DNA from: Brenneria salicis ATCC 15712 = DSM 30166
Lineage (GTDB): Bacteria > Pseudomonadota > Gammaproteobacteria > Enterobacterales > Enterobacteriaceae
Assembly (NCBI RefSeq): GCF_003315515.1
Contig: NZ_QNRY01000026.1
Span: 1 to 53,520, forward strand
Direction: 5' to 3'
Length of the DNA stretch: 53,520 nucleotides
Part shown: positions 28,417 to 38,186 of the stretch, in pieces
Layout: the number at the start of each line of letters is the position of its first letter
How positions within the stretch are numbered: the first letter of the stretch is position 1
Made by a program: the position numbers and the translations under genes
The notes under the pieces: generated by a model
The model's database searches: none
Told to the model about the DNA's origin: nothing
What the model saw: only the letters and a program-made list of their open reading frames with translations

Positions 28417-28443
28417 GGGATAAGCGTCGTTATCCTCTGTAGA

Positions 28444-28463
28444 GCCTGCAATGGATTGCAGGC
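28444..28463. terminator. Palindrome after ddpF, possible operon end
   Basis: GCCTGCAA-TGGA-TTGCAGGC is a perfect 8-bp stem with a 4-nt loop, 28 nt after the ddpF stop. No T run follows, so rho-independent termination is doubtful. Confidence 0.4.
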
Positions 28464-29354
28464 GCAATACCCCGCGCTATTCCAATGGAATATCAATCAT
28501 CCTGTCCTGCCCGTTGTTCTGAATATTTCCAATCTATCTGCCACATTTCAGAATGGATCTTACTCTCCGGCCATTTTACTGACATTAAATTGATTGTTTG
28601 TTTATTAATCAAAATCAACATTCTGATTTATCTTTAGTACAACACTCATTAGTTTATTATTTTAACCTAAGTGATGTTTATAAATAAAAATTCTGATAGT
28701 TTTTATTAAGAGTATATGATTTATAAAAACCAACAGATTGTTTTTTTCATGAATTCTGCCCTGGATTATTACTATGGTTATTTATCCTGAAAAAAATTAG
28801 AATTAAAAATTAGTTAAAATAAAACCGCCTATAAATTACCGAATATTTTCATTATTAGTTTTCTAACTATTTAAATCCCAAATTAAATTAGAAGACAAAA
28901 AATAGCGCTTTTTTTGTTTAATTGAGACTGCCGGAGAATAAGGGCGTGATGGGTTTTTTAACGCTGTTCTTGATGCCTTATATTTGTTTAATTTATTGTT
29001 TTTATTATATTTGTTTTAAAAATCAATTTAGTCGTTCATCTAATCATATAGGCATTGACCATCTGTTGGTGTTGTGTGTATGATCCAAACGAAAATTATA
29101 AGCGTATTTAGGGCTTCTTTCTTTATTTGACGCTTATTTTCTCCTTTTGAATCGTGGTTCATACGATTTAATAATGCGTCGGTAATTCCGTATAATGATG
29201 CGGATTTTATTTCTTTTATCTCGTTGGTCGAAAAAAACAAATAATTTATTTATTTGTGATTCGGATGGTCTGCTATTGATGGAATCGGCAGGGATTTCGA
29301 TGAAAATCGACTTTATTTCTCCGGGCCAGAGCATCCTTACGTTGGTATAGACAT
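28464..29354. other. Long AT-rich intergenic region upstream of the T6SS genes
   Basis: About 890 nt without a convincing gene. From about 28560 to 29000 the base composition is far more AT-rich than the flanking operons, with many A and T tracts, typical of silenced (H-NS-bound) promoter regions of accessory loci. It should contain the tssB promoter. No clear sigma-54 or sigma-70 element stood out, and the ribosome-binding site before tssB is weak. Confidence 0.5.
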
Positions 29355-29858
29355 ATGGCTAAAGGAACGGACGGTGCATCTGTCGCACCAAAGGAACGTA
29401 TTAATATTAAATATGTTCCGGCTACTGGTGGTCAGCAGGCGGAAATAGAATTGCCGTTGACGCTGATGGTGGTGGGAAATATGAAAGGACGTACAGAGGA
29501 AACGCCTATCGAGGAACGTCAAACGGTATCGATCGACAAAAACAATTTCGCCTCGGTGATGAAAGAGGCCAATCTGGAACTGAATTTTAGTGTGCCTAAT
29601 CGCCTTGAAGATGAGGGTCAGGATGATCTGCCGGTCAAACTGAACATTGGTTCTCTGAATGATTTCTCGCCTGATCGCATTGCTCAACAAGTGCCTGAAT
29701 TACGTAAGTTATTGGAATTGCGTGAGGCGCTGGTGGCCTTGAAAGGACCTCTCGGCAATATTCCTTCCTTCCGTAATCGTTTGCAGGATCTGTTGTCCAG
29801 TGAAGAGGCCAGAGAGCAGCTACTCAAAGAACTGGATCTGGTGAAACCCGCAGAATAA
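29355..29858 (+). CDS. tssB: Type VI secretion sheath small subunit TssB (VipA/ImpB)
   Basis: A 167-residue protein. Family segments are RINIKYVPATGGQQAEIELP, LTLMVVGNMKGR, the sheath-forming LNFSVPNRL and LNIGSLNDFSPDRIAQQVPELRKLLELREAL. TssB and TssC together form the contractile sheath around the Hcp tube in the cytoplasm. The gene starts the preserved part of the T6SS locus, with tssC 32 nt downstream. Confidence 0.95.
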   Translation: MAKGTDGASVAPKERINIKYVPATGGQQAEIELPLTLMVVGNMKGRTEETPIEERQTVSIDKNNFASVMKEANLELNFSVPNRLEDEGQDDLPVKLNIGSLNDFSPDRIAQQVPELRKLLELREALVALKGPLGNIPSFRNRLQDLLSSEEAREQLLKELDLVKPAE

Positions 29859-29890: not shown

Positions 29891-31369
29891 ATGTCAATCG
29901 TTGAAGAACAGGCGCAGTCCGGGGCCGCCAGTGCCTCTGGATCACTGCTTGACGAAATTATGGCGCAGGCGCGCATCACCCCGGTGGATGAAGGATACAG
30001 CGTCGCCAAACAAGGGATCGCCGCGCTGGTCGCCAATATCCTTGATAACGGCAACGCGGCGGAGCCAGTAAATAAAGCGCTGGTCGACAGTATGATCGTC
30101 GAACTGGACAAAAAGCTCAGCAAGCAGATCGACGTTATCCTGCATGCTCAGGCGCTTCAGGAACTGGAATCATCCTGGCGCTCTTTGAAGCTGATGGTGG
30201 ATCGCACCGATTTTCGTGAAAACATCAAAATCCTGGTATTGCACGCGACCAAGGAAGAACTGCTGGAGGATTTCGAGTTCGCGCCTGAAATCACGCAGTC
30301 CGGTTTCTACAAACACGTTTATTCCAGTGGATACGGACAGTTCGGCGGTCAGCCTATCGGCGGCGTGATCGGCGACTACGCCATGACCCAGAGTTCTCCC
30401 GATATCAAACTGATGCAGTATGTCAGCGCGGTGGGCGCGATGGCCCATGCGCCGTTTATCTCCTCCGTGGCGCCGACCTTCTTTGGCGTGGACAATTTTA
30501 CCGATTTGCCTTCCATCAAAGATCTGAAATCGGTCTTCGAAGGCCCCGCCTACACCAAATGGCGCTCGCTGCGCGAATCGGAAGAAGCGCGCTACCTGGG
30601 GCTGACGGCGCCGCGCTTTTTAGCGCGTCTGCCTTACGTTCCGGTAGAGAACCCGATCAAGGGCTTCAACTACAAGGAAGACATCAGTTCCGATCATAAC
30701 CACTATCTGTGGGGCAACACCGCTTACCTGATGGGAACGGCCCTGACCGACAGCTTCGCCAAGTACCGCTGGTGTCCGAACATCATCGGCCCGCAGAGTG
30801 GCGGCGCGATCACCGATCTGCCGGTGCATGTTTATGAAGCGATGGGACAGCTTCAGGCCAAGATCCCAACAGAAGTGCTGATTACCGATCGTCGCGAATA
30901 CGAGATGGCCGAAGAGGGCTTTATCACGCTGACGATGCGTAAAGACAGCGACAATGCGGCGTTCTTCTCCGCCAACTCGGTGCAGAAACCCAAGGTTTTC
31001 CCAAACACCAAAGAAGGGAAAGAGGCGGAAACCAACTACAAGCTGGGTACGCAACTGCCGTACATGTTCATCATCAACCGTTTGGCGCACTACATCAAAG
31101 TATTGCAGCGTGAGCAAATTGGCGCATGGAAAGAACGTCAGGATCTTGAGCGTGAGCTTAATAGCTGGATTAAACAGTACGTCGCCGATCAGGAAAACCC
31201 GCCGGCAGACGTTCGCAGCCGCCGTCCTCTGCGCGCCGCCCAAATCAATGTGCTGGATGTGGAAGGCGAACCCGGCTGGTATCAGGTCACGATGGCGGTT
31301 CGTCCTCACTTCAAGTATATGGGGGCAAACTTTGAACTGTCGCTGGTAGGTCGTTTGGATAAGGAATAA
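29891..31369 (+). CDS. tssC: Type VI secretion sheath large subunit TssC (VipB/ImpC)
   Basis: A 492-residue protein of the usual TssC length. Characteristic blocks are LQELESSWRSLKLMVDRTDF, GVIGDYAMTQSSPDIKLM, the PFISSVAPTFFGVDNFTDLP segment and the C-terminal ENPPADVRSRRPLRAAQINV with VRPHFKYMGANFELSLVGRL. It forms the sheath with TssB. The start at ATG 29891 has GGGAA upstream. tssE follows after 5 nt. Confidence 0.96.
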   Translation: MSIVEEQAQSGAASASGSLLDEIMAQARITPVDEGYSVAKQGIAALVANILDNGNAAEPVNKALVDSMIVELDKKLSKQIDVILHAQALQELESSWRSLKLMVDRTDFRENIKILVLHATKEELLEDFEFAPEITQSGFYKHVYSSGYGQFGGQPIGGVIGDYAMTQSSPDIKLMQYVSAVGAMAHAPFISSVAPTFFGVDNFTDLPSIKDLKSVFEGPAYTKWRSLRESEEARYLGLTAPRFLARLPYVPVENPIKGFNYKEDISSDHNHYLWGNTAYLMGTALTDSFAKYRWCPNIIGPQSGGAITDLPVHVYEAMGQLQAKIPTEVLITDRREYEMAEEGFITLTMRKDSDNAAFFSANSVQKPKVFPNTKEGKEAETNYKLGTQLPYMFIINRLAHYIKVLQREQIGAWKERQDLERELNSWIKQYVADQENPPADVRSRRPLRAAQINVLDVEGEPGWYQVTMAVRPHFKYMGANFELSLVGRLDKE

Positions 31370-31374
31370 CGCTG

Positions 31375-31806
31375 ATGCCGTCGCTTTCCGCCTGGGAAAG
31401 GGGAACCGCGGCCAGCCTGTTCGATCGTATCCGGGGGGAAGCGCCACGCGCCTCCCCTGAAACGGATGTTGAAGCACTGATTGCGTCCGTGAAGCGTCAA
31501 TTGGATCAGGTGCTCAATACCCGGCCCGGAAGTTGTCGCAGCGCACCTGAGCTTGGCGTGATTGATTTCAATGACGCCACGCAAAGCGGCGCCGATATTC
31601 GGGGAAAAATCCGGGAGGCGATCCGGCAGTGTATCTGTCGCTTTGAACCTCGAATCGTCCATGTGGACATCAGTGCGTCGGACTATCTGTCTAATCCGTT
31701 GGAGATGTCGTTTCAGGTCACCGCCCATGTCAGGCTGGATGAACTGGAGCAGGTCGCCTCCTTCAATATTCATATGGATAGTCATCGCCATTACAGAATG
31801 ATCTGA
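31375..31806 (+). CDS. tssE: Type VI secretion baseplate protein TssE
   Basis: A 143-residue gp25/GPW-like protein, homologous to the phage T4 baseplate wedge subunit. Features are the N-terminal PSLSAWERG segment (SLFDRI), the GVIDFNDA region and the conserved C-terminal IRQCICRFEPRIVHVDIS block with its Glu-Pro-Arg. It belongs to the baseplate wedge that triggers sheath assembly. It is separated from tssF by 2 nt. Confidence 0.92.
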   Translation: MPSLSAWERGTAASLFDRIRGEAPRASPETDVEALIASVKRQLDQVLNTRPGSCRSAPELGVIDFNDATQSGADIRGKIREAIRQCICRFEPRIVHVDISASDYLSNPLEMSFQVTAHVRLDELEQVASFNIHMDSHRHYRMI

Positions 31807-31808
31807 TT

Positions 31809-33575
31809 ATGTCACTGGAACATTTTTTCAGGGATGAATTGACCTACTTGCGCCTGCAAGGGCGCGAATTCGCCAAAGCCCACCCTGAACTAACCCGATT
31901 TTTGTCAGAACAGACCACTGACCCGGATGTCGAGCGACTTCTGGAAGGGTTCGCTTTTTTGACCGGAAGTCTGCGGGCGAAGATCGAGGACGAGTTTCCT
32001 GAACTGACGCATGGTTTGCTGGGCATGCTGTGGCCCAACTATCTGCGCCCCGTGCCGAGTATGACGATTATGCAGTTTTCGGTACTCCCCGGCGCCATCG
32101 CGCAGCCCGCCTTTGTCGCACGCGGCTGCGAGCTTGACAGCTTGCCGGTGGACGAGATGGTCTGGCATTTTCAGACCTGTCACGACGCCTGGATCTACCC
32201 GGCGGATATCCGCCAGATCAACGTACAAAGCGGTAACGATCTCTCGACCATAACGCTGGATATCGGTCTGCACGGCCCGCTGTCATTAGGCTCTCTGCAA
32301 CTCGACAAACTGCGCTTTTATCTGGGCGGCGATACTTACACCGCCTATGAACTTTATTTCTGGATAGCCAGCCAGTTATCGCACATTGAGTTGGAAGTCG
32401 ACGGCCAGCGCTTCCGTCAGGAAGCCGGCGTACTGAAAACGGTGGGATTTGAACGTGAAGATGCGCTGCTACCGTATCCGGGCAACGTTTATTCCGGCTA
32501 TCGTATTCTACAAGAGTATTTCTGTTTCCCTGAAAGCTTTCTGTTCTTCCAACTGTCCGGTGCGGCATGGCCCGACTTGCCGTTAACGGTGACGGCGTTC
32601 CGCCTGCATTTCTGTTTCGATCGTCCCTTGCCCGCGGAACTGAAAATCCGGCCCGACTCATTCATGCTCAACTGTGTCCCGGCCATCAATCTGTTCCAGC
32701 ATGACAGCGAACCGATCAATCTCAGCGGACGTCAGACGGAATATCCGCTGAAAGCCAGTTACCGCCATGCCGAGGGATTTGAAATTTTCTCCATCGATAA
32801 GGTGGACGGTTGGGTGGAAGGCAATGCCGGTCGTTCACGCGGCGTGCCGCGCGTCTACCAGCCATTTGAAAGCTTCCAGCATCAGATTGAGCGCGCCAAA
32901 GGGCGGCTAGCGCTGTATTACCGTATTCGGGTACGGGAAGCCGTTAGCGGCGACGGTTTTGAGCATTTGCTTTCCTTTGTCCGTGGGGATGAACGTGAAG
33001 TAATTGATCTGGATGAATCCATTTCCGTCAGCCTGACCTGCACCAATCGTTCGCGGGCGGCGCAATTGCCGGTTGGCGCGATCTGTGTGCCGACCGGCAA
33101 TTCTCCCTCCTTCGCCACATTTCGCAATCTGACCTGGCCAACCCGTCCGCTAAGACCGGCAATGGACGGCAGCCTGCACTGGACGCTGATTTCCAACCTG
33201 TCGTTGAACTATGTTTCGTTGCTGCGCCGCGATGCGTTGGTGCAAATTTTGCGCACCTACGATTTCCCCGCCCTGCATGACAAACAAGCGGAACAGGCCT
33301 CGCGTAAACGGCTAGCGGGGATCGAGTCCATCGACACCACGCCCATTGATCGGCTGGTGCGGGGGATGCCGGTTCGCGGTCTGAAGTCGGTGCTGTCGAT
33401 ACGGCAGTCCGCCTTCTCCAGCGAAGGAGAACTGTATCTGTTCAGTACGGTGCTGGCGCATTTCTTCTCGCTGTACGCCAGCGTCAATGCTTTCCACCTG
33501 CTGGAGGTGGTCAACATCGATAACAAGGAGCGCTACCGATGGCCGGTACAGATAGGTCAGCACTCGATGATGTGA
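31809..33575 (+). CDS. tssF: Type VI secretion baseplate protein TssF (ImpG/VasA)
   Basis: A 588-residue protein of normal family length. It opens with FFRDELTYLRLQGREFAKAHPEL and contains EQTTDPDVERLLEGFAFLTG, ELTHGLLGMLWPNYLRPVPSM and the C-terminal FSSEGELYLFSTVLAHFFSLYASVNAF. TssF forms the baseplate wedge with TssG, TssE and TssK. Its 3' end overlaps the truncated tssG by 37 nt, as is common for this pair. The gene is intact although its partner is broken. Confidence 0.95.
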   Translation: MSLEHFFRDELTYLRLQGREFAKAHPELTRFLSEQTTDPDVERLLEGFAFLTGSLRAKIEDEFPELTHGLLGMLWPNYLRPVPSMTIMQFSVLPGAIAQPAFVARGCELDSLPVDEMVWHFQTCHDAWIYPADIRQINVQSGNDLSTITLDIGLHGPLSLGSLQLDKLRFYLGGDTYTAYELYFWIASQLSHIELEVDGQRFRQEAGVLKTVGFEREDALLPYPGNVYSGYRILQEYFCFPESFLFFQLSGAAWPDLPLTVTAFRLHFCFDRPLPAELKIRPDSFMLNCVPAINLFQHDSEPINLSGRQTEYPLKASYRHAEGFEIFSIDKVDGWVEGNAGRSRGVPRVYQPFESFQHQIERAKGRLALYYRIRVREAVSGDGFEHLLSFVRGDEREVIDLDESISVSLTCTNRSRAAQLPVGAICVPTGNSPSFATFRNLTWPTRPLRPAMDGSLHWTLISNLSLNYVSLLRRDALVQILRTYDFPALHDKQAEQASRKRLAGIESIDTTPIDRLVRGMPVRGLKSVLSIRQSAFSSEGELYLFSTVLAHFFSLYASVNAFHLLEVVNIDNKERYRWPVQIGQHSMM

Positions 33576-34090
33576 AGTTTCGCCAGGACGCCTCACGCTT
33601 CAATTTTTTCCAACTGGTGGAACTGCTGAATCAGTTGGAAGAGGTTGATCTGGAGCAGGAACTGGATTTCCGGCCCGATCAGGAACGGTTGCGTTTCCGC
33701 TCGACGGCATCAATCGGTTTCCATCCTGCGGATGTTCTGCGGGTGGGACAGGATAACCAGGGGCGTCAGGAACTGGAGGTGGCGTTTCTGGGGCTGCACG
33801 GCAGCCAGTCGCCGATGCCGGGTTATTACCTGGAAGAATTGGCCTGGGAGTACGCGCAGGGCGAGCAAAAGCTGGGCGTGTTTCTCAATTTCTTTCATCA
33901 CCGGCTGTTGACGCTGCTTCATCGCGCCTGGCGCAAATATCGCTACCACGTCCGTTTTCAGAATGACGGCGAGGATGGTTTCTCCCGGCTGATGTTCGCT
34001 CTGGTGGGATTGGGCAACGACGCCGTACGGGACAGCCTGCCGGTCAGCCGGGGTTGCTGGGTACGCTGTGGCGTTGCAACTGGGATATGA
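33539..34090 (+). pseudogene. tssG: Truncated tssG (type VI baseplate protein), fused to rhs DNA
   Basis: The first about 170 residues match TssG (ImpH/VasB): KFRQDASRFNFFQLVELLNQ, RFRSTASIGFHPADVL, EVAFLGLHGSQSPMPGYYLEE and FLNFFHHRLLTLLHRAWRKYRY. After VRDSLPVSR the remaining residues come from an out-of-frame read into rhs sequence, and the frame stops at 34088-34090. The usual C-terminal half (full length about 330-350 residues) is missing, so the baseplate cannot form from this copy. The junction lies near 34044-34053. The stop codon overlaps an rhs ATG as ATGA. AAGGAG precedes ATG 33539. Confidence 0.88.
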
Positions 34091-37000
34091 GTCTGGCGTT
34101 GAACAAAGGCGTGATCACGCTAACCGACGGCGAGTTCGATCAGGCGGTATTCGCTCTGCCCGCCGAAGGCGAATCAAGCCGTGCGCCGTCTAACCCGGCG
34201 TGGCGACTGACCCGTCGGCAGGGGCAGTTGGTGTTGCAGCATGTTGATGGCTTGCGCTACCGGTTTGAGCATGCGCTCGGTCTGCAACTGTGTCTGACGG
34301 CGATCGAGGACCGGTCAGGAAACCGTATATCGCTGCTATGGGATCGGGCGACCCTGTGCTGGGTTGCCTTACCGGATGGCCGTCTGGTGCATGTGGAAAC
34401 CGCGCATCACCGGATTGTCAAACTGACGCTATGCGACGCGCATCGTCAGCCGCTGAAAACGTTGGCCAGTTATACCTATGACGCGCGCGGACACTTGTTA
34501 AGTGTTCGTGCGGGGGAAGGACGTAATTTTGACTACCGTTACTCGCCGGAATGGCTGTTGCGTTGGTCTGATTTGGGCTCTACCTGGGTTGAGCATGATT
34601 ACGATGAAAAAGGCTGGGCGATACGTGACAGAACCGCCGGGGGATACTGGCCGGGCCATTTCGAATATGACGATGACAACCTGACCAGCCATTATCACAG
34701 TGGTTTTGGCAGGGTGATCAGCTATGTGCGTGATGAACACAATAATATCTTGCTACGCCGCGAGCCAGATGGCGGTGAAAACCGGTTTGAGTGGGTAAAC
34801 AACCAATTGGCGGCAGAAATTGATCCGCTGGGCAATCGCACGGAATACCAGCGTAATGCATGGGGGCAAGTGACGACGGTGACGTTGCCGGATGGCGCGA
34901 TACACCGTTATGACTATGACGACGATGGTCAGTTAACCGCTTATACCGACCCGATGGGCAGCGTATGGCGTTATCAGCGTAATGCCGCTGACCAACTGGT
35001 GGAAGTGAATGACCCGGAAGGCCGCGAGTGGTTGCATCATTATCATGATAATGGCGAGTTGGCGACGCTCATCGGGCCGGATGGGGTGCTGCAACGTTAT
35101 CACTACAATGCGCGTGGCTTACTGAGCGGGCTTGAGCGCGATGACGCGCCAGCGGTCACGTTCATCTATGACGACCATGACCGTCTGACGGAACGGCACA
35201 TCGCCCATGAGCAGTGTATGCAGGTGCGTCGCTGGGAATACGAGGGGGGACGCGAGTCGCCGTCAAAAGTGATTTATGAAGACGGCAGCGAAACCCGGTT
35301 TGGTTATGACGTGGAAGGTAATCTGACCACGGTAACCGACGCGCTGGGTCAACGCTATCAGTTCCGTTACGGGGCGTTCGATAACCTGATGACCGCCACT
35401 GACCCGCTGGGCGCGACGGTGCGCTATCACTATAATGCGGAAGCCGAATTTGCCGGCGTGACCAACAGCCAGGGACGGGAGTGGCAGTATCGCTTTGACA
35501 GCAGCGGGCGTCTGAGTGAAGAGCGGCATTATGACGGCCGGTTATACCGCTACGCGTATGACGCAGCGGGTCGGCTGACGCAGCGTGTCGCCCCGGACGG
35601 CAGCGCGATACGGTATGCGCATGATGCGGCCGGGCGAGTGACGACGCTCACGACATTGAAAACGGACGGGACAACAGAGGGCGTCACGACGCTGGCGTAT
35701 GATATGGCCGGCCGGCTGGTCAGGGCGGCCAGCCCGGATGCGGTGGTGGCGTACGTCTATAACCGCGCCGGTCAGGTGGTGAGCGAAACCGTGAATGGGG
35801 AGGCGGTGACCAGCGATTACGATGCGGGCGGGCAGCGATCGGTGGTGGAGGGCGTGCTGGCCCCGCTGCGGTTGTCGTGGTCGTCGGGACAATTGTCGGT
35901 GCTGGGCATCGGGGCGCATCAGGCGCTGAGGTTCAGCCACACGGCATCGGGTCAGGAGCAGCGCAGAAGCAACGAGGCCGGATTTTCCCTGCGTCAGGAG
36001 TGGAGTCCGAACGGGTTGCTGCGACATCAGGCGCTGGAGGGGATGAGCGACGTGATGGAGCGTCGCTACCAGTATGATGTGCTGGACCGGCTGACGGGCA
36101 TCAGCGACAGTAACTGGGGCGAGCAGGCATTCAGGCTGAACGGCACGGGTCAGGTGACGGCGGAGCGTAGGGAGCAAGGGAAGCGGCGTCAGGCGAGGTT
36201 GTTTGGTTACGACAGCGAGCAGAACCTGTGTGAAATCGCCGGGATAGCGCCGGGAAAAGGCGAGACGCTGGCGGTTGCGGATGCGGCTGTGCAGTGGTCG
36301 GCGCGGTATGATGCGGCGGGCCGGTTGGTCGAGCGCGGCGATACGCAATACCGGTATGACGAGTGTGGGCGTCTGGTGGAGAAACGGACGTTGCGGGCGG
36401 GCTTCCGGGTGAAGGAAACGCGGTACGAGTGGGATGTGCAGTGGGTGTATGAGCCGGGAAGTTTTCGTCCGCTGGCGCAGGTGGAGTCAAAGGAGGGTGC
36501 GACGCGGCTGCACTATATCGTGACGGACCTGACGGGGACGGCGCGGGAGTTATGCAGTGAAGTAGGCCAGGTTCACTGGCGGGGCGAGCAGGGGCTATGG
36601 GGCGCGCATCGCGAGGAAAAAATCCCTATTCTGCGGAGACGCTACCTGGGCGATGCGGCGAACGAGGAGGTGTACTGCGACCTGCGCTATCAGGGGCAGT
36701 TATACGATGCGGAAACAGGGCTTTACTATAATCGGCATCGTTATTATGATGCGGAGGGTATTCAGCAGTATATTTCGCCTGACCCGGTGGGACTGCGTGG
36801 GGGCATCCGACCTCAGGGATATGTGCATAATCCGCTGGAATGGGTTGACCCGCTGGGGTTGGTTGGGTGTCCGGGAGAAGACGGGGCGTCAAAGGATTCC
36901 TATGGTTCTTATAGACCGGATCGTCCTTTGCCTCGTGATAAGAACGGAAATCCTGTTCCGGATACTGATGCCCCGCATACACAGTTAGGTTCTAAGAAAG

Positions 37001-37197
37001 GCAGAAAAGGAACATACACTCAAGCGAGAGAATGGGGATATGATGAAAATGGTAAACTCGTTCCTAAGCGAGATATAGATTTTACAGATCATGGGCGACC
37101 GGCTAAACATCCTAATCCTCATCAACATGATTATATTCCAAATCCTACGGGCGGGACACCTCAGCACGGCCCAGCCAGAAAGTTGGAGCTTCCATAA
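34087..37197 (+). CDS. N-terminally truncated Rhs core with C-terminal toxin tip
   Basis: An open frame of 1036 codons from ATG 34087 (rhs homology starts slightly earlier, near 34047). It encodes many YD repeats (for example [19 protein letters not shown] and [15 protein letters not shown]) and the Rhs core end [23 protein letters not shown] followed by WVDPLGL. The N-terminal region of a full Rhs effector, with PAAR, transmembrane and linker parts, is absent. After DPLGL (about 36861) comes a 110-residue variable tip, visibly richer in A and T than the core. It contains [34 protein letters not shown] and [20 protein letters not shown], resembling polymorphic toxin type 24. The stop overlaps the immunity gene start (TAATG). 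Without its N-terminus it is unlikely to be secreted by T6SS. Confidence 0.85.
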
Positions 37198-37565
37198 TGC
37201 AAGTAATAAACGGTGAGATGTTTTCCAAGGAAAATATAAAACTAAAATTAATTGATCTAATAAAAGCTATTCCAGAAAATGATTGGAATTGGTATCTCTA
37301 CGAAATAGATGCTATTGGATGTGCTTTGTATGGTTTATCTATGCCTGACTTTGAGGATCTGGTTTTATCAAAGAAACATGGGTTGGAAATGTCATGGAGT
37401 GAAGTTAAATTATTGGCTAATTCATTAGATGATATAAAGACTTTTTTTATCGTGGCTAGTTCTGGTTTATTATTATATGAGGACGTAGATATAGATAATT
37501 TAACGAATTGCCTTGCGATAATTAATGTTTTTGATAGTACGTTTTGGGAAGTAAAAATAAAATAA
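37197..37565 (+). CDS. Putative immunity protein for the Rhs tip
   Basis: A 122-residue acidic protein that I do not recognise as a named family. It is rich in Asp, Glu and Leu, with no signal peptide or membrane segment, and its DNA is AT-rich like the toxin tip and unlike the rhs core. Its ATG shares one base with the rhs stop codon, the typical place for the cognate immunity gene of an Rhs toxin. A strong terminator follows 6 nt after the stop. The role is inferred from position only. Confidence 0.7.
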   Translation: MQVINGEMFSKENIKLKLIDLIKAIPENDWNWYLYEIDAIGCALYGLSMPDFEDLVLSKKHGLEMSWSEVKLLANSLDDIKTFFIVASSGLLLYEDVDIDNLTNCLAIINVFDSTFWEVKIK

Positions 37566-37570
37566 ATAAA

Positions 37571-37606
37571 AGCCGGAAGTGATCGTCGATCCTTCCGGCT
37601 TTTTTA
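37571..37606 (+). terminator. Rho-independent terminator after the rhs/immunity pair
   Basis: AGCCGGAAG (37571-37579) pairs with CTTCCGGCT (37592-37600), and the inner bases GATCG/CGATC extend the stem. Six T residues follow (37600-37605). This is the clearest terminator in the window. Confidence 0.92.
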
Positions 37607-37918
37607 TTAAGCCAGCATAATCCCTCGCTCCGCCCGAATGGTTATTTTACCGGGCAGCAGTTCAATATTTAACGACTGGTCGGGCAACCCGCAGCGGGTC
37701 AGCCAGTCGCCCGCCAGATAAAGCTCGCCGTTATCGCGTATCCAGTCGGCGCCCTCGCGGTCATGGCCGCCGAGTTCAGCCAGCAGCGCGGCGATATCGG
37801 TATCCTCATCGAGTCGGGTCAGCACCAGCCCGTCGCGGTACAGGCTGATACGGAACAGGGTATTGGCGGTAAAGCCCGCCTGAGCCAGTTCGTCGCCGGT
37901 GAGCGGCAGTGCCGTGAA
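37607..37918 (-). pseudogene. SymE-like toxin remnant, N-terminally truncated
   Basis: Minus-strand frame bounded upstream by a TAG at 37919-37921. It encodes GDWLTRCGLPDQSLNIELL followed by PGKITIRAE, the AbrB-fold pattern of SymE-type type I toxins (compare GQWLEAAGF ... KVMEGCIVLT in E. coli SymE). A second, similar half precedes it: LPLTGDELAQAGFTANTLF then RISLYRDGLVLTRLD. The best start inside the fragment is ATG 37825. SymE-like genes often lie beside Rhs loci. Its 5' end is joined to a different toxin-antitoxin remnant. Confidence 0.5.
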
Positions 37919-37920
37919 CT

Positions 37921-38186
37921 ACCCATTTCAGAATCGATGAGGAGATCAAACGGCTGGCGATGCAGGCCGCCGAACGTCATCAGGTCAGTCTGACGGAGTC
38001 ATGCGTCAGCGGGTGGAAGCGGCAATCGATATAGGCAAGTCAGGGAAGAGAAGAAAACTGGTGCTGACAACGTTCCCGTTCATCATTATCTATGCGCTGA
38101 AACGAGAGATAAACGAAGTGCATATCCTGCGGATATTACATACCCATACCTCGCGCAAAGTGTCGGCGAAATACCCGCCGCGATAG
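37921..38186 (+). pseudogene. Degraded type II toxin-antitoxin pair (antitoxin middle joined to ParE/RelE-like toxin tail)
   Basis: The first frame reads HFRIDEEIKRLAMQAAERHQ then VSLTE, typical of a ribbon-helix-helix or RelB/DinJ-like antitoxin. A one-base loss near 37999 moves the continuation MRQRVEAAID into another frame. That frame then runs into RKLVLTTFPFIIIYALKREI and NEVHILRILHTHTSRK, which is the C-terminal strand region of ParE/RelE-family toxins. The start codon of the antitoxin and most of the toxin are missing. The remnant cannot encode a functional pair. Confidence 0.6.

What the first reader, a model, noticed from the sequence alone, without database searches (positions are those of the whole stretch)
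33539..34120. tssG truncated and joined directly to a headless rhs, with an ATGA overlap at the junction
tssB, tssC, tssE and tssF are intact and in normal order, but tssG breaks off after about 170 residues and continues as Rhs core sequence near 34044-34053. The TGA that ends the tssG frame overlaps an in-frame rhs ATG (ATGA, 34087-34090). The break could thus allow coupled translation of a 1036-residue Rhs core with its toxin tip and immunity gene. Normally tssA/H/J/K/L/M, hcp and vgrG lie in the lost interval, so an internal deletion or a rearrangement is implied.
Basis: partly seen in the sequence, partly recalled or inferred. Interest (0 to 1): 0.7.

Follow-up and report, generated by a model that had tools for sequence, protein, structure and literature searches.

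The report
T6SS lost by deletion into rhs
A close relative of the bacterium Brenneria izbisi has lost most of its bacterial 'harpoon' (type VI secretion system) through one deletion of about 26.6 kb, which joined a baseplate gene to the back part of a toxin gene; it is an ordinary decay event of a kind already described in E. coli and Salmonella.

Summary
tssB, tssC, tssE and tssF are full length; tssG follows its relatives for 169 codons and then, at 34045-34050, passes out of frame into rhs. In the nearest held genome (G003, taken to be Brenneria izbisi KBI 423; 94-95% DNA identity) the same tssG and rhs sites lie on one strand 26,596 bp apart; in G001 26,970 bp apart. The missing interval holds the rest of tssG, tssJ, K, L, H, A, M, hcp, vgrG, PAAR and other genes, and the first 519 codons of rhs. 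TssK, TssL and TssM families are absent from the window's genome, and of the interval's DNA only an hcp-vgrG stretch recurs well. Of 9 genomes of the genus only this one lacks TssM. So one short-homology deletion removed the apparatus. The ATGA 'start' is an internal rhs Met codon, present with the same ATGA in G003 and G005, without a clear Shine-Dalgarno signal: coupling is possible, not supported. rhs also carries an in-frame 204-bp deletion. Closest precedent: the rhsG-tssM deletion of E. coli ST410 (PMC10711316).

The parts
29355..29858 (+). tssB (sheath, VipA)
   Evidence: PF05591 E 2.2e-55
29891..31369 (+). tssC (sheath, VipB)
   Evidence: PF05943 E 1.1e-126
31375..31806 (+). tssE (gp25-like baseplate)
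   Evidence: PF04965 E 2.4e-20
31809..33575 (+). tssF (baseplate), full length 588 aa
   Evidence: PF05947 positions 5-607/608
33539..34090 (+). tssG', truncated: 169 TssG codons plus 14 codons across the junction and in out-of-frame rhs DNA, then TGA
   Evidence: PF06996 positions 2-157/304; comparison with the 332-aa TssG of L019
34045..34050 (.). deletion junction tssG/rhs; 2 bp shared exactly, and 4-5 of 6 around a mismatch, depending on the relative used
   Evidence: base-by-base comparison with G003, G001 and G005
34087..37197 (+). rhs': 5'-deleted rhs core with C-terminal tip (frame open from 34054); the homology begins at residue 520 of the 1679-aa frame in G003
   Evidence: RHS_repeat E 1.1e-66, RHS E 3e-12; collinear with G003; residue number
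36431..36441 (.). scar of a second, in-frame 204-bp deletion inside the rhs core
36862..37194 (+). Rhs C-terminal tip after the DPxGL motif; weak Ntox24 resemblance below cut-off
   Evidence: PF15529 E 0.017, 15.9 bits against a cut-off of 24; relatives of 50.6-67% identity on 6 plasmid records
37197..37565 (+). presumed immunity gene (122 aa), TAATG overlap with the rhs stop, G+C 30%
   Evidence: position and overlap, G+C; no Pfam or NCBIfam match at E up to 1

Best explanation
One illegitimate deletion of about 26.6 kb, between sites inside tssG and rhs that share only a few bases, removed the core of the only T6SS cluster found in this genome. What is left (tssBCEF, half of tssG, the rear of rhs with tip and presumed immunity gene) is a remnant that cannot assemble: TssA, H, J, K, L and M are gone, and the Rhs lacks its N-terminal part. 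tssG and rhs are joined out of frame, so no fusion protein forms. The ATGA at the tssG stop is an internal rhs Met codon that happens to fall there. Shown: the deletion, its borders and content, absence of lost genes, frame relation. Inferred: loss of secretion, and that the remnant has no selected function, except possibly the immunity gene.
For: tssG and rhs flanks collinear on one strand 26,596 bp apart in G003 and 26,970 bp apart in G001. Content of the interval by Pfam. No TssM, TssK or TssL family match in the genome and a single TssG match. 26,585 of the 26,596 interval bases of G003 searched in the own genome as DNA in two pieces: an hcp-vgrG stretch (93%, contig C9) and otherwise only short matches of 67-81% (one search scored 40 of 81 candidates, 39 of 39). 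IcmF/TssM in 8 of 9 genomes of the genus, missing only here; TssG over nearly the whole profile in 8 of 9, cut at position 157 only here. Genome listed as 100% complete. Second lesion in rhs; the other rhs, on C9, is split in two overlapping frames where G003 has one frame of at least 1195 aa.
Against: No reads or second strain were available, so a misassembly is not formally excluded, though it would not explain why the genes are missing elsewhere. The remaining genes show no clear decay: polarised with G001, tssB-tssG' carry 52 synonymous and 7 nonsynonymous changes on the window branch against 59 and 4 on the G003 branch, and rhs' 38.5 and 16.5 against 24 and 10 (sums of rows; for the short 3' rhs piece it was not settled which of the two G003 copies was matched). 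That fits a recent event, but equally a retained function.
Confidence: 0.92

Rival explanations
1. Coupled expression: ribosomes that end tssG' at TGA re-initiate at the overlapping ATG and make a headless Rhs with its toxin tip, which with the immunity protein now works inside the cell as a toxin-antitoxin pair.
For: ATGA overlap and an open 1036-codon frame; TAATG overlap with the immunity gene; rhs' has no stop in frame and its second deletion keeps the frame. Weak Shine-Dalgarno scores also at tssF and tssB starts, so its lack is no proof against. Precedent: Salmonella main and orphan rhs tips act as type II TA modules, but from internal promoters and a CTG start near the tip (PMC7043789, passages seen).
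Against: The Met codon pre-exists inside intact rhs; 68 residues that the related Rhs proteins keep are lost; promoter-like sites at chance level; no expression data.
Confidence: 0.1
2. Assembly artefact: an assembler joined tssG to rhs.
For: Draft assembly of 93 contigs; rhs genes often are repetitive (recalled).
Against: Junction homology is only a few bases. The own genome has no second close copy of this rhs: the other matches are 29-41% at protein level. TssM, TssK and TssL are missing from the genome and so is nearly all of the interval.
Confidence: 0.04
3. The rear of rhs is kept for its immunity gene alone, which protects this T6SS-less strain from relatives that still fire the same toxin. 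(Not exclusive with the deletion reading.)
For: Immunity frame intact; retention of orphan tips with immunity genes as a defence is proposed for bee-gut Gilliamella (PMC8125069, passages seen).
Against: Tip and immunity gene had no counterpart (E up to 0.001) in the loci then held other than the window's own, among them rhs regions of G003, G001 and G005; no population data; retention may simply reflect a recent deletion.
Confidence: 0.15

Closest known systems
E. coli ST410-B/H24 T6SS loss by a 21.0-kb rhsG-tssM deletion (PMC10711316, passages seen)
   Same: One internal deletion between a core tss gene and an rhs gene removes most tss genes and leaves remnants of both at the junction; no mobile element at the site; loss of the apparatus.
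   Different: Other partner gene (tssM, not tssG) and other species; that paper calls recombination the probable cause, here the shared sequence is a few bases.
Salmonella Enteritidis SPI-19 internal deletion of about 24 kb (PMC2907695, abstract and passages seen)
   Same: Internal deletion in a T6SS island that leaves 3 core components.
   Different: Other borders and island; junction base pairs not seen in the passages read.
Enterobacter bugandensis E104107 remnants: truncated tssH and truncated tssC beside tssB (PMC10763514, passages seen)
   Same: Truncated tss gene at a deletion edge beside intact neighbours.
   Different: No rhs at the junction in the passages seen, and a complete second T6SS remains in that strain.
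Orphan rhs-CT/rhsI modules (PMC3967940 and PMC7043789, passages seen)
   Same: An rhs fragment without delivery part and without its own start signals, with an immunity gene behind it.
   Different: Orphans described there lie downstream of a main rhs; here the main gene itself lost its 5' part.

Membership tests
T6SS gene cluster, functional | complete set of core genes tssA-M | tested here: not met
   TssM, TssK and TssL families absent from the genome; the DNA for tssA, H and J, as held by G003, has only weak short matches (40 of 81 candidates scored); tssG truncated
T6SS remnant left by internal deletion | both borders collinear with a complete locus in a close relative, with the interval missing | tested here: met
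Full-length Rhs T6SS effector | N-terminal delivery part ahead of the YD-repeat shell | tested here: not met
   homology starts at residue 520 of the G003 frame; the 5' part has no DNA match in the own genome
Full-length Rhs T6SS effector | RHS core ending in DPxGL, variable tip, immunity gene behind | tested here: met
   TIGR03696 E 3.7e-19; DPLGL seen and tip differs from both G003 tips; a 122-aa frame follows; that it gives immunity is inferred from position
Orphan Rhs-CT as toxin-antitoxin module | expressed inside the cell, toxic without its immunity protein | not testable with these tools
   no expression or toxicity data; for the precedent
Translationally coupled gene pair | overlap of stop and start with evidence of re-initiation | tested here: inconclusive
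   ATGA overlap present, but the Met codon pre-exists in intact rhs and there is no clear Shine-Dalgarno signal

The most novel reading that the evidence does not exclude
The deletion placed a delivery-less Rhs toxin and its immunity gene under the tss operon with a ready-made ATGA start, so that a dead secretion locus became an intracellular toxin-immunity module; the in-frame second deletion and the undecayed frames would then reflect selection.
Probability: 0.07. Interest if true: 0.5.

Novelty: new member of a known kind. Interest (0 to 1): 0.2.

Why it matters
It is one more clean case of T6SS loss by a single deletion that ends in an rhs gene, this time in Brenneria, with both borders resolved to a few bases against a 95% identical complete locus. 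With E. coli ST410 it makes two such cases known to me from these calls, which hints that rhs genes may be recurrent endpoints of T6SS loss. A strain that keeps a presumed immunity gene but no weapon would be a useful natural control for competition tests. It is not a new mechanism.

Tried and rejected
Looked for a sigma-54 promoter ahead of tssB, since the interval lost includes a sigma-54 activator: 27 hits with up to 2 mismatches in the window against 30.85 expected; none lies between 28544 and 29354, the nearest being 28528-28543 on the minus strand. No conclusion. Promoter-like sites in 33000-38000 are at chance level (4 against 3.1) and terminator-like sites below it (1 against 4.3). Deletion by a mobile element: there is no extra DNA at the junction, the two sides abut; insertion sequences were not searched for as such. 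Ntox24 membership of the tip: below cut-off, not claimed. Relaxed selection after the deletion: no clear difference between branches; the four control genes gave no polarised counts, presumably because their G001 counterparts were not in the DNA fetched. Species name of the window not determined; its genus is taken as Brenneria because G003, listed as same genus, matches B. izbisi. No structure was predicted. In the literature, the searches were read as listings only; [quoted passage not shown] nothing on this locus in the passages shown). No title about this junction was seen in the two Brenneria searches (20 of 34 and 15 of 38 papers listed); of those only PMC6286560 was opened.

Full report
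What is there. The window is C26:1-53520 of a 3.9-Mb draft genome of 93 contigs, listed as 100% complete. tssB, tssC, tssE and tssF are full length. The tssG frame (33539-34090, 183 aa) matches the TssG profile only over positions 2-157 of 304. Against the 332-aa TssG of L019 it differs at 3 of the first 169 residues and has lost the resemblance from residue 170 on.

The junction. Searches of 39 genomes (own included) placed the rhs side and the tssG side separately. In G003 they lie on the minus strand of contig C25 and in G001 on the plus strand of one contig, in the order and relative orientation of the window. The distances are 26,596 and 26,970 bp. In G005 they lie far apart on one contig. 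Base by base, the window follows tssG to 34046 and rhs from 34043-34045 on. The two sides share two bases exactly at 34045-34046, and four (G003 rhs) or five (G005 rhs) of six bases at 34045-34050 around a mismatch; the ancestor may have differed from the relatives by a base. This is the mark of short-homology, illegitimate deletion. There is no extra DNA at the site.

What was lost. In G003 the interval codes for the rest of tssG, an FHA protein, TssJ, TssK, TssL, an AAA+ protein of ClpB type taken as TssH, a sigma-54 activator, a VasI protein, TssA (VasJ), TssM, a VasL protein, a Sel1-repeat protein, Hcp, VgrG, a PAAR protein with weak lipase-like matches, two ankyrin-repeat proteins, two DUF4123 proteins, and the first 519 codons of a 1679-codon rhs. 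26,585 of its 26,596 bases were searched in the own genome as two pieces, 19,900 and 6,685 bases. The only strong match is an hcp-vgrG stretch on contig C9 (93%); the others are short and 67-81% identical. In one search only 40 of 81 candidate places were scored, so I also searched families: TssM (PF06761), TssK (PF05936) and TssL (PF09850) have no match in this genome. TssM is found in 8 of 9 genomes of the genus and is missing only here. TssG is present in 9 of 9 and cut only here. Among 78 TssF loci (the best 80 of 136 relatives) 77 have a TssG match on the right strand; 74 of these read for at least 280 residues, one runs off its contig, and two of Symbiopectobacterium stop at 242. None of these three is among the rhs-core match segments listed in that call.

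The rhs remnant. rhs' is out of frame with tssG, so no fusion protein arises. It keeps an open frame to the tip, and the presumed immunity gene follows. It has a second lesion: 204 bp missing at 36431-36441 relative to G003, G001 and G005, in frame, across a 6-bp identity (10 of 11 bases). The missing 68 residues are aligned without gaps in the rhs copies of G003 (two), G001 (two), G005 and G006, and with up to 9 gapped positions in more distant Rhs proteins. The tip differs from both tips of G003. It has relatives on Leptospira (5) and Protochlamydia (1) plasmid records at 50.6-67% identity, and a sub-threshold resemblance to Ntox24. The other rhs of this genome, in an hcp-vgrG-DcrB-rhs island on C9, is split into two overlapping frames, whereas the G003 counterpart is open for at least 1195 codons. 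A sequencing error there is not excluded. If it is real, both rhs genes of this strain are damaged.

Is the ATGA a working start? The ATG at 34087 is an ordinary Met codon inside the intact rhs, with the same ATGA in G003 and G005 and ATGT in G001. In the phase in which tssG runs into rhs, 52 of 836 entry points meet such an overlap at their first stop; in the other phase 0 of 836. The Shine-Dalgarno energy is -2.3 kcal/mol against a median of -2.6 for 965 ATGs; but tssF (0.2) and tssB (-2.9) score poorly too, so this says little. Coupling may happen, but nothing shows that it was selected. Substitution counts do not help: the branch to the window shows no clear relaxation against the branch to G003 in tssB-tssG' (52 synonymous and 7 nonsynonymous against 59 and 4) or in rhs' (38.5 and 16.5 against 24 and 10; sums of rows). 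This is what a recent deletion would give, and also what a retained function would give.

Placing it. Partial loss of T6SS clusters by one internal deletion is well described. In E. coli ST410-B/H24 a 21.0-kb deletion between rhsG and tssM leaves remnants of both (PMC10711316, passages). In Salmonella Enteritidis an internal deletion of about 24 kb removed most of SPI-19 (PMC2907695, abstract and passages). Enterobacter bugandensis E104107 has a truncated tssH and a truncated tssC at deletion edges (PMC10763514, passages). In bee-gut bacteria T6SS loss typically goes by deletion of the whole locus, or of a part with later pseudogenization of the rest (PMC8125069, passages). The present case is a further member of that kind, in Brenneria.

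Verdict. Observation confirmed; deletion supported; coupling unsupported. Interest is low. The remaining open point is whether the beheaded rhs with its presumed immunity gene does anything; a type II toxin-antitoxin role is reported for Salmonella rhs tips (PMC7043789, passages), but from different start signals.

Noticed in passing
window 36431-36441: In-frame 204-bp deletion in the rhs core relative to G003, G001 and G005, across a 6-bp identity.
   Followed up: yes
L119 5682-12680 (G000 contig C9): A separate hcp-vgrG-DcrB-rhs island in the same genome; its rhs is split into two overlapping frames, while the G003 counterpart is open. With no apparatus left this island would have nothing to load.
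   Followed up: partly
L106 (G003:C25), about 156681-159845: The relative has a main rhs tip with a small gene behind it and a second, orphan rhs tip with its own; the window has one tip only, and it matches neither.
   Followed up: partly
window 36862-37194: Rhs tip with 65-67% identical relatives on 5 Leptospira plasmid records and 50.6% on one Protochlamydia plasmid, an unexpected spread for a Brenneria tip.
   Followed up: no
L020 and L023: Two Symbiopectobacterium loci have a TssG frame that stops at 242 residues, a possible second case of T6SS decay.
   Followed up: no
window 28417-29354: AT-rich intergenic stretch of about 0.9 kb ahead of tssB (read by eye).
   Followed up: no
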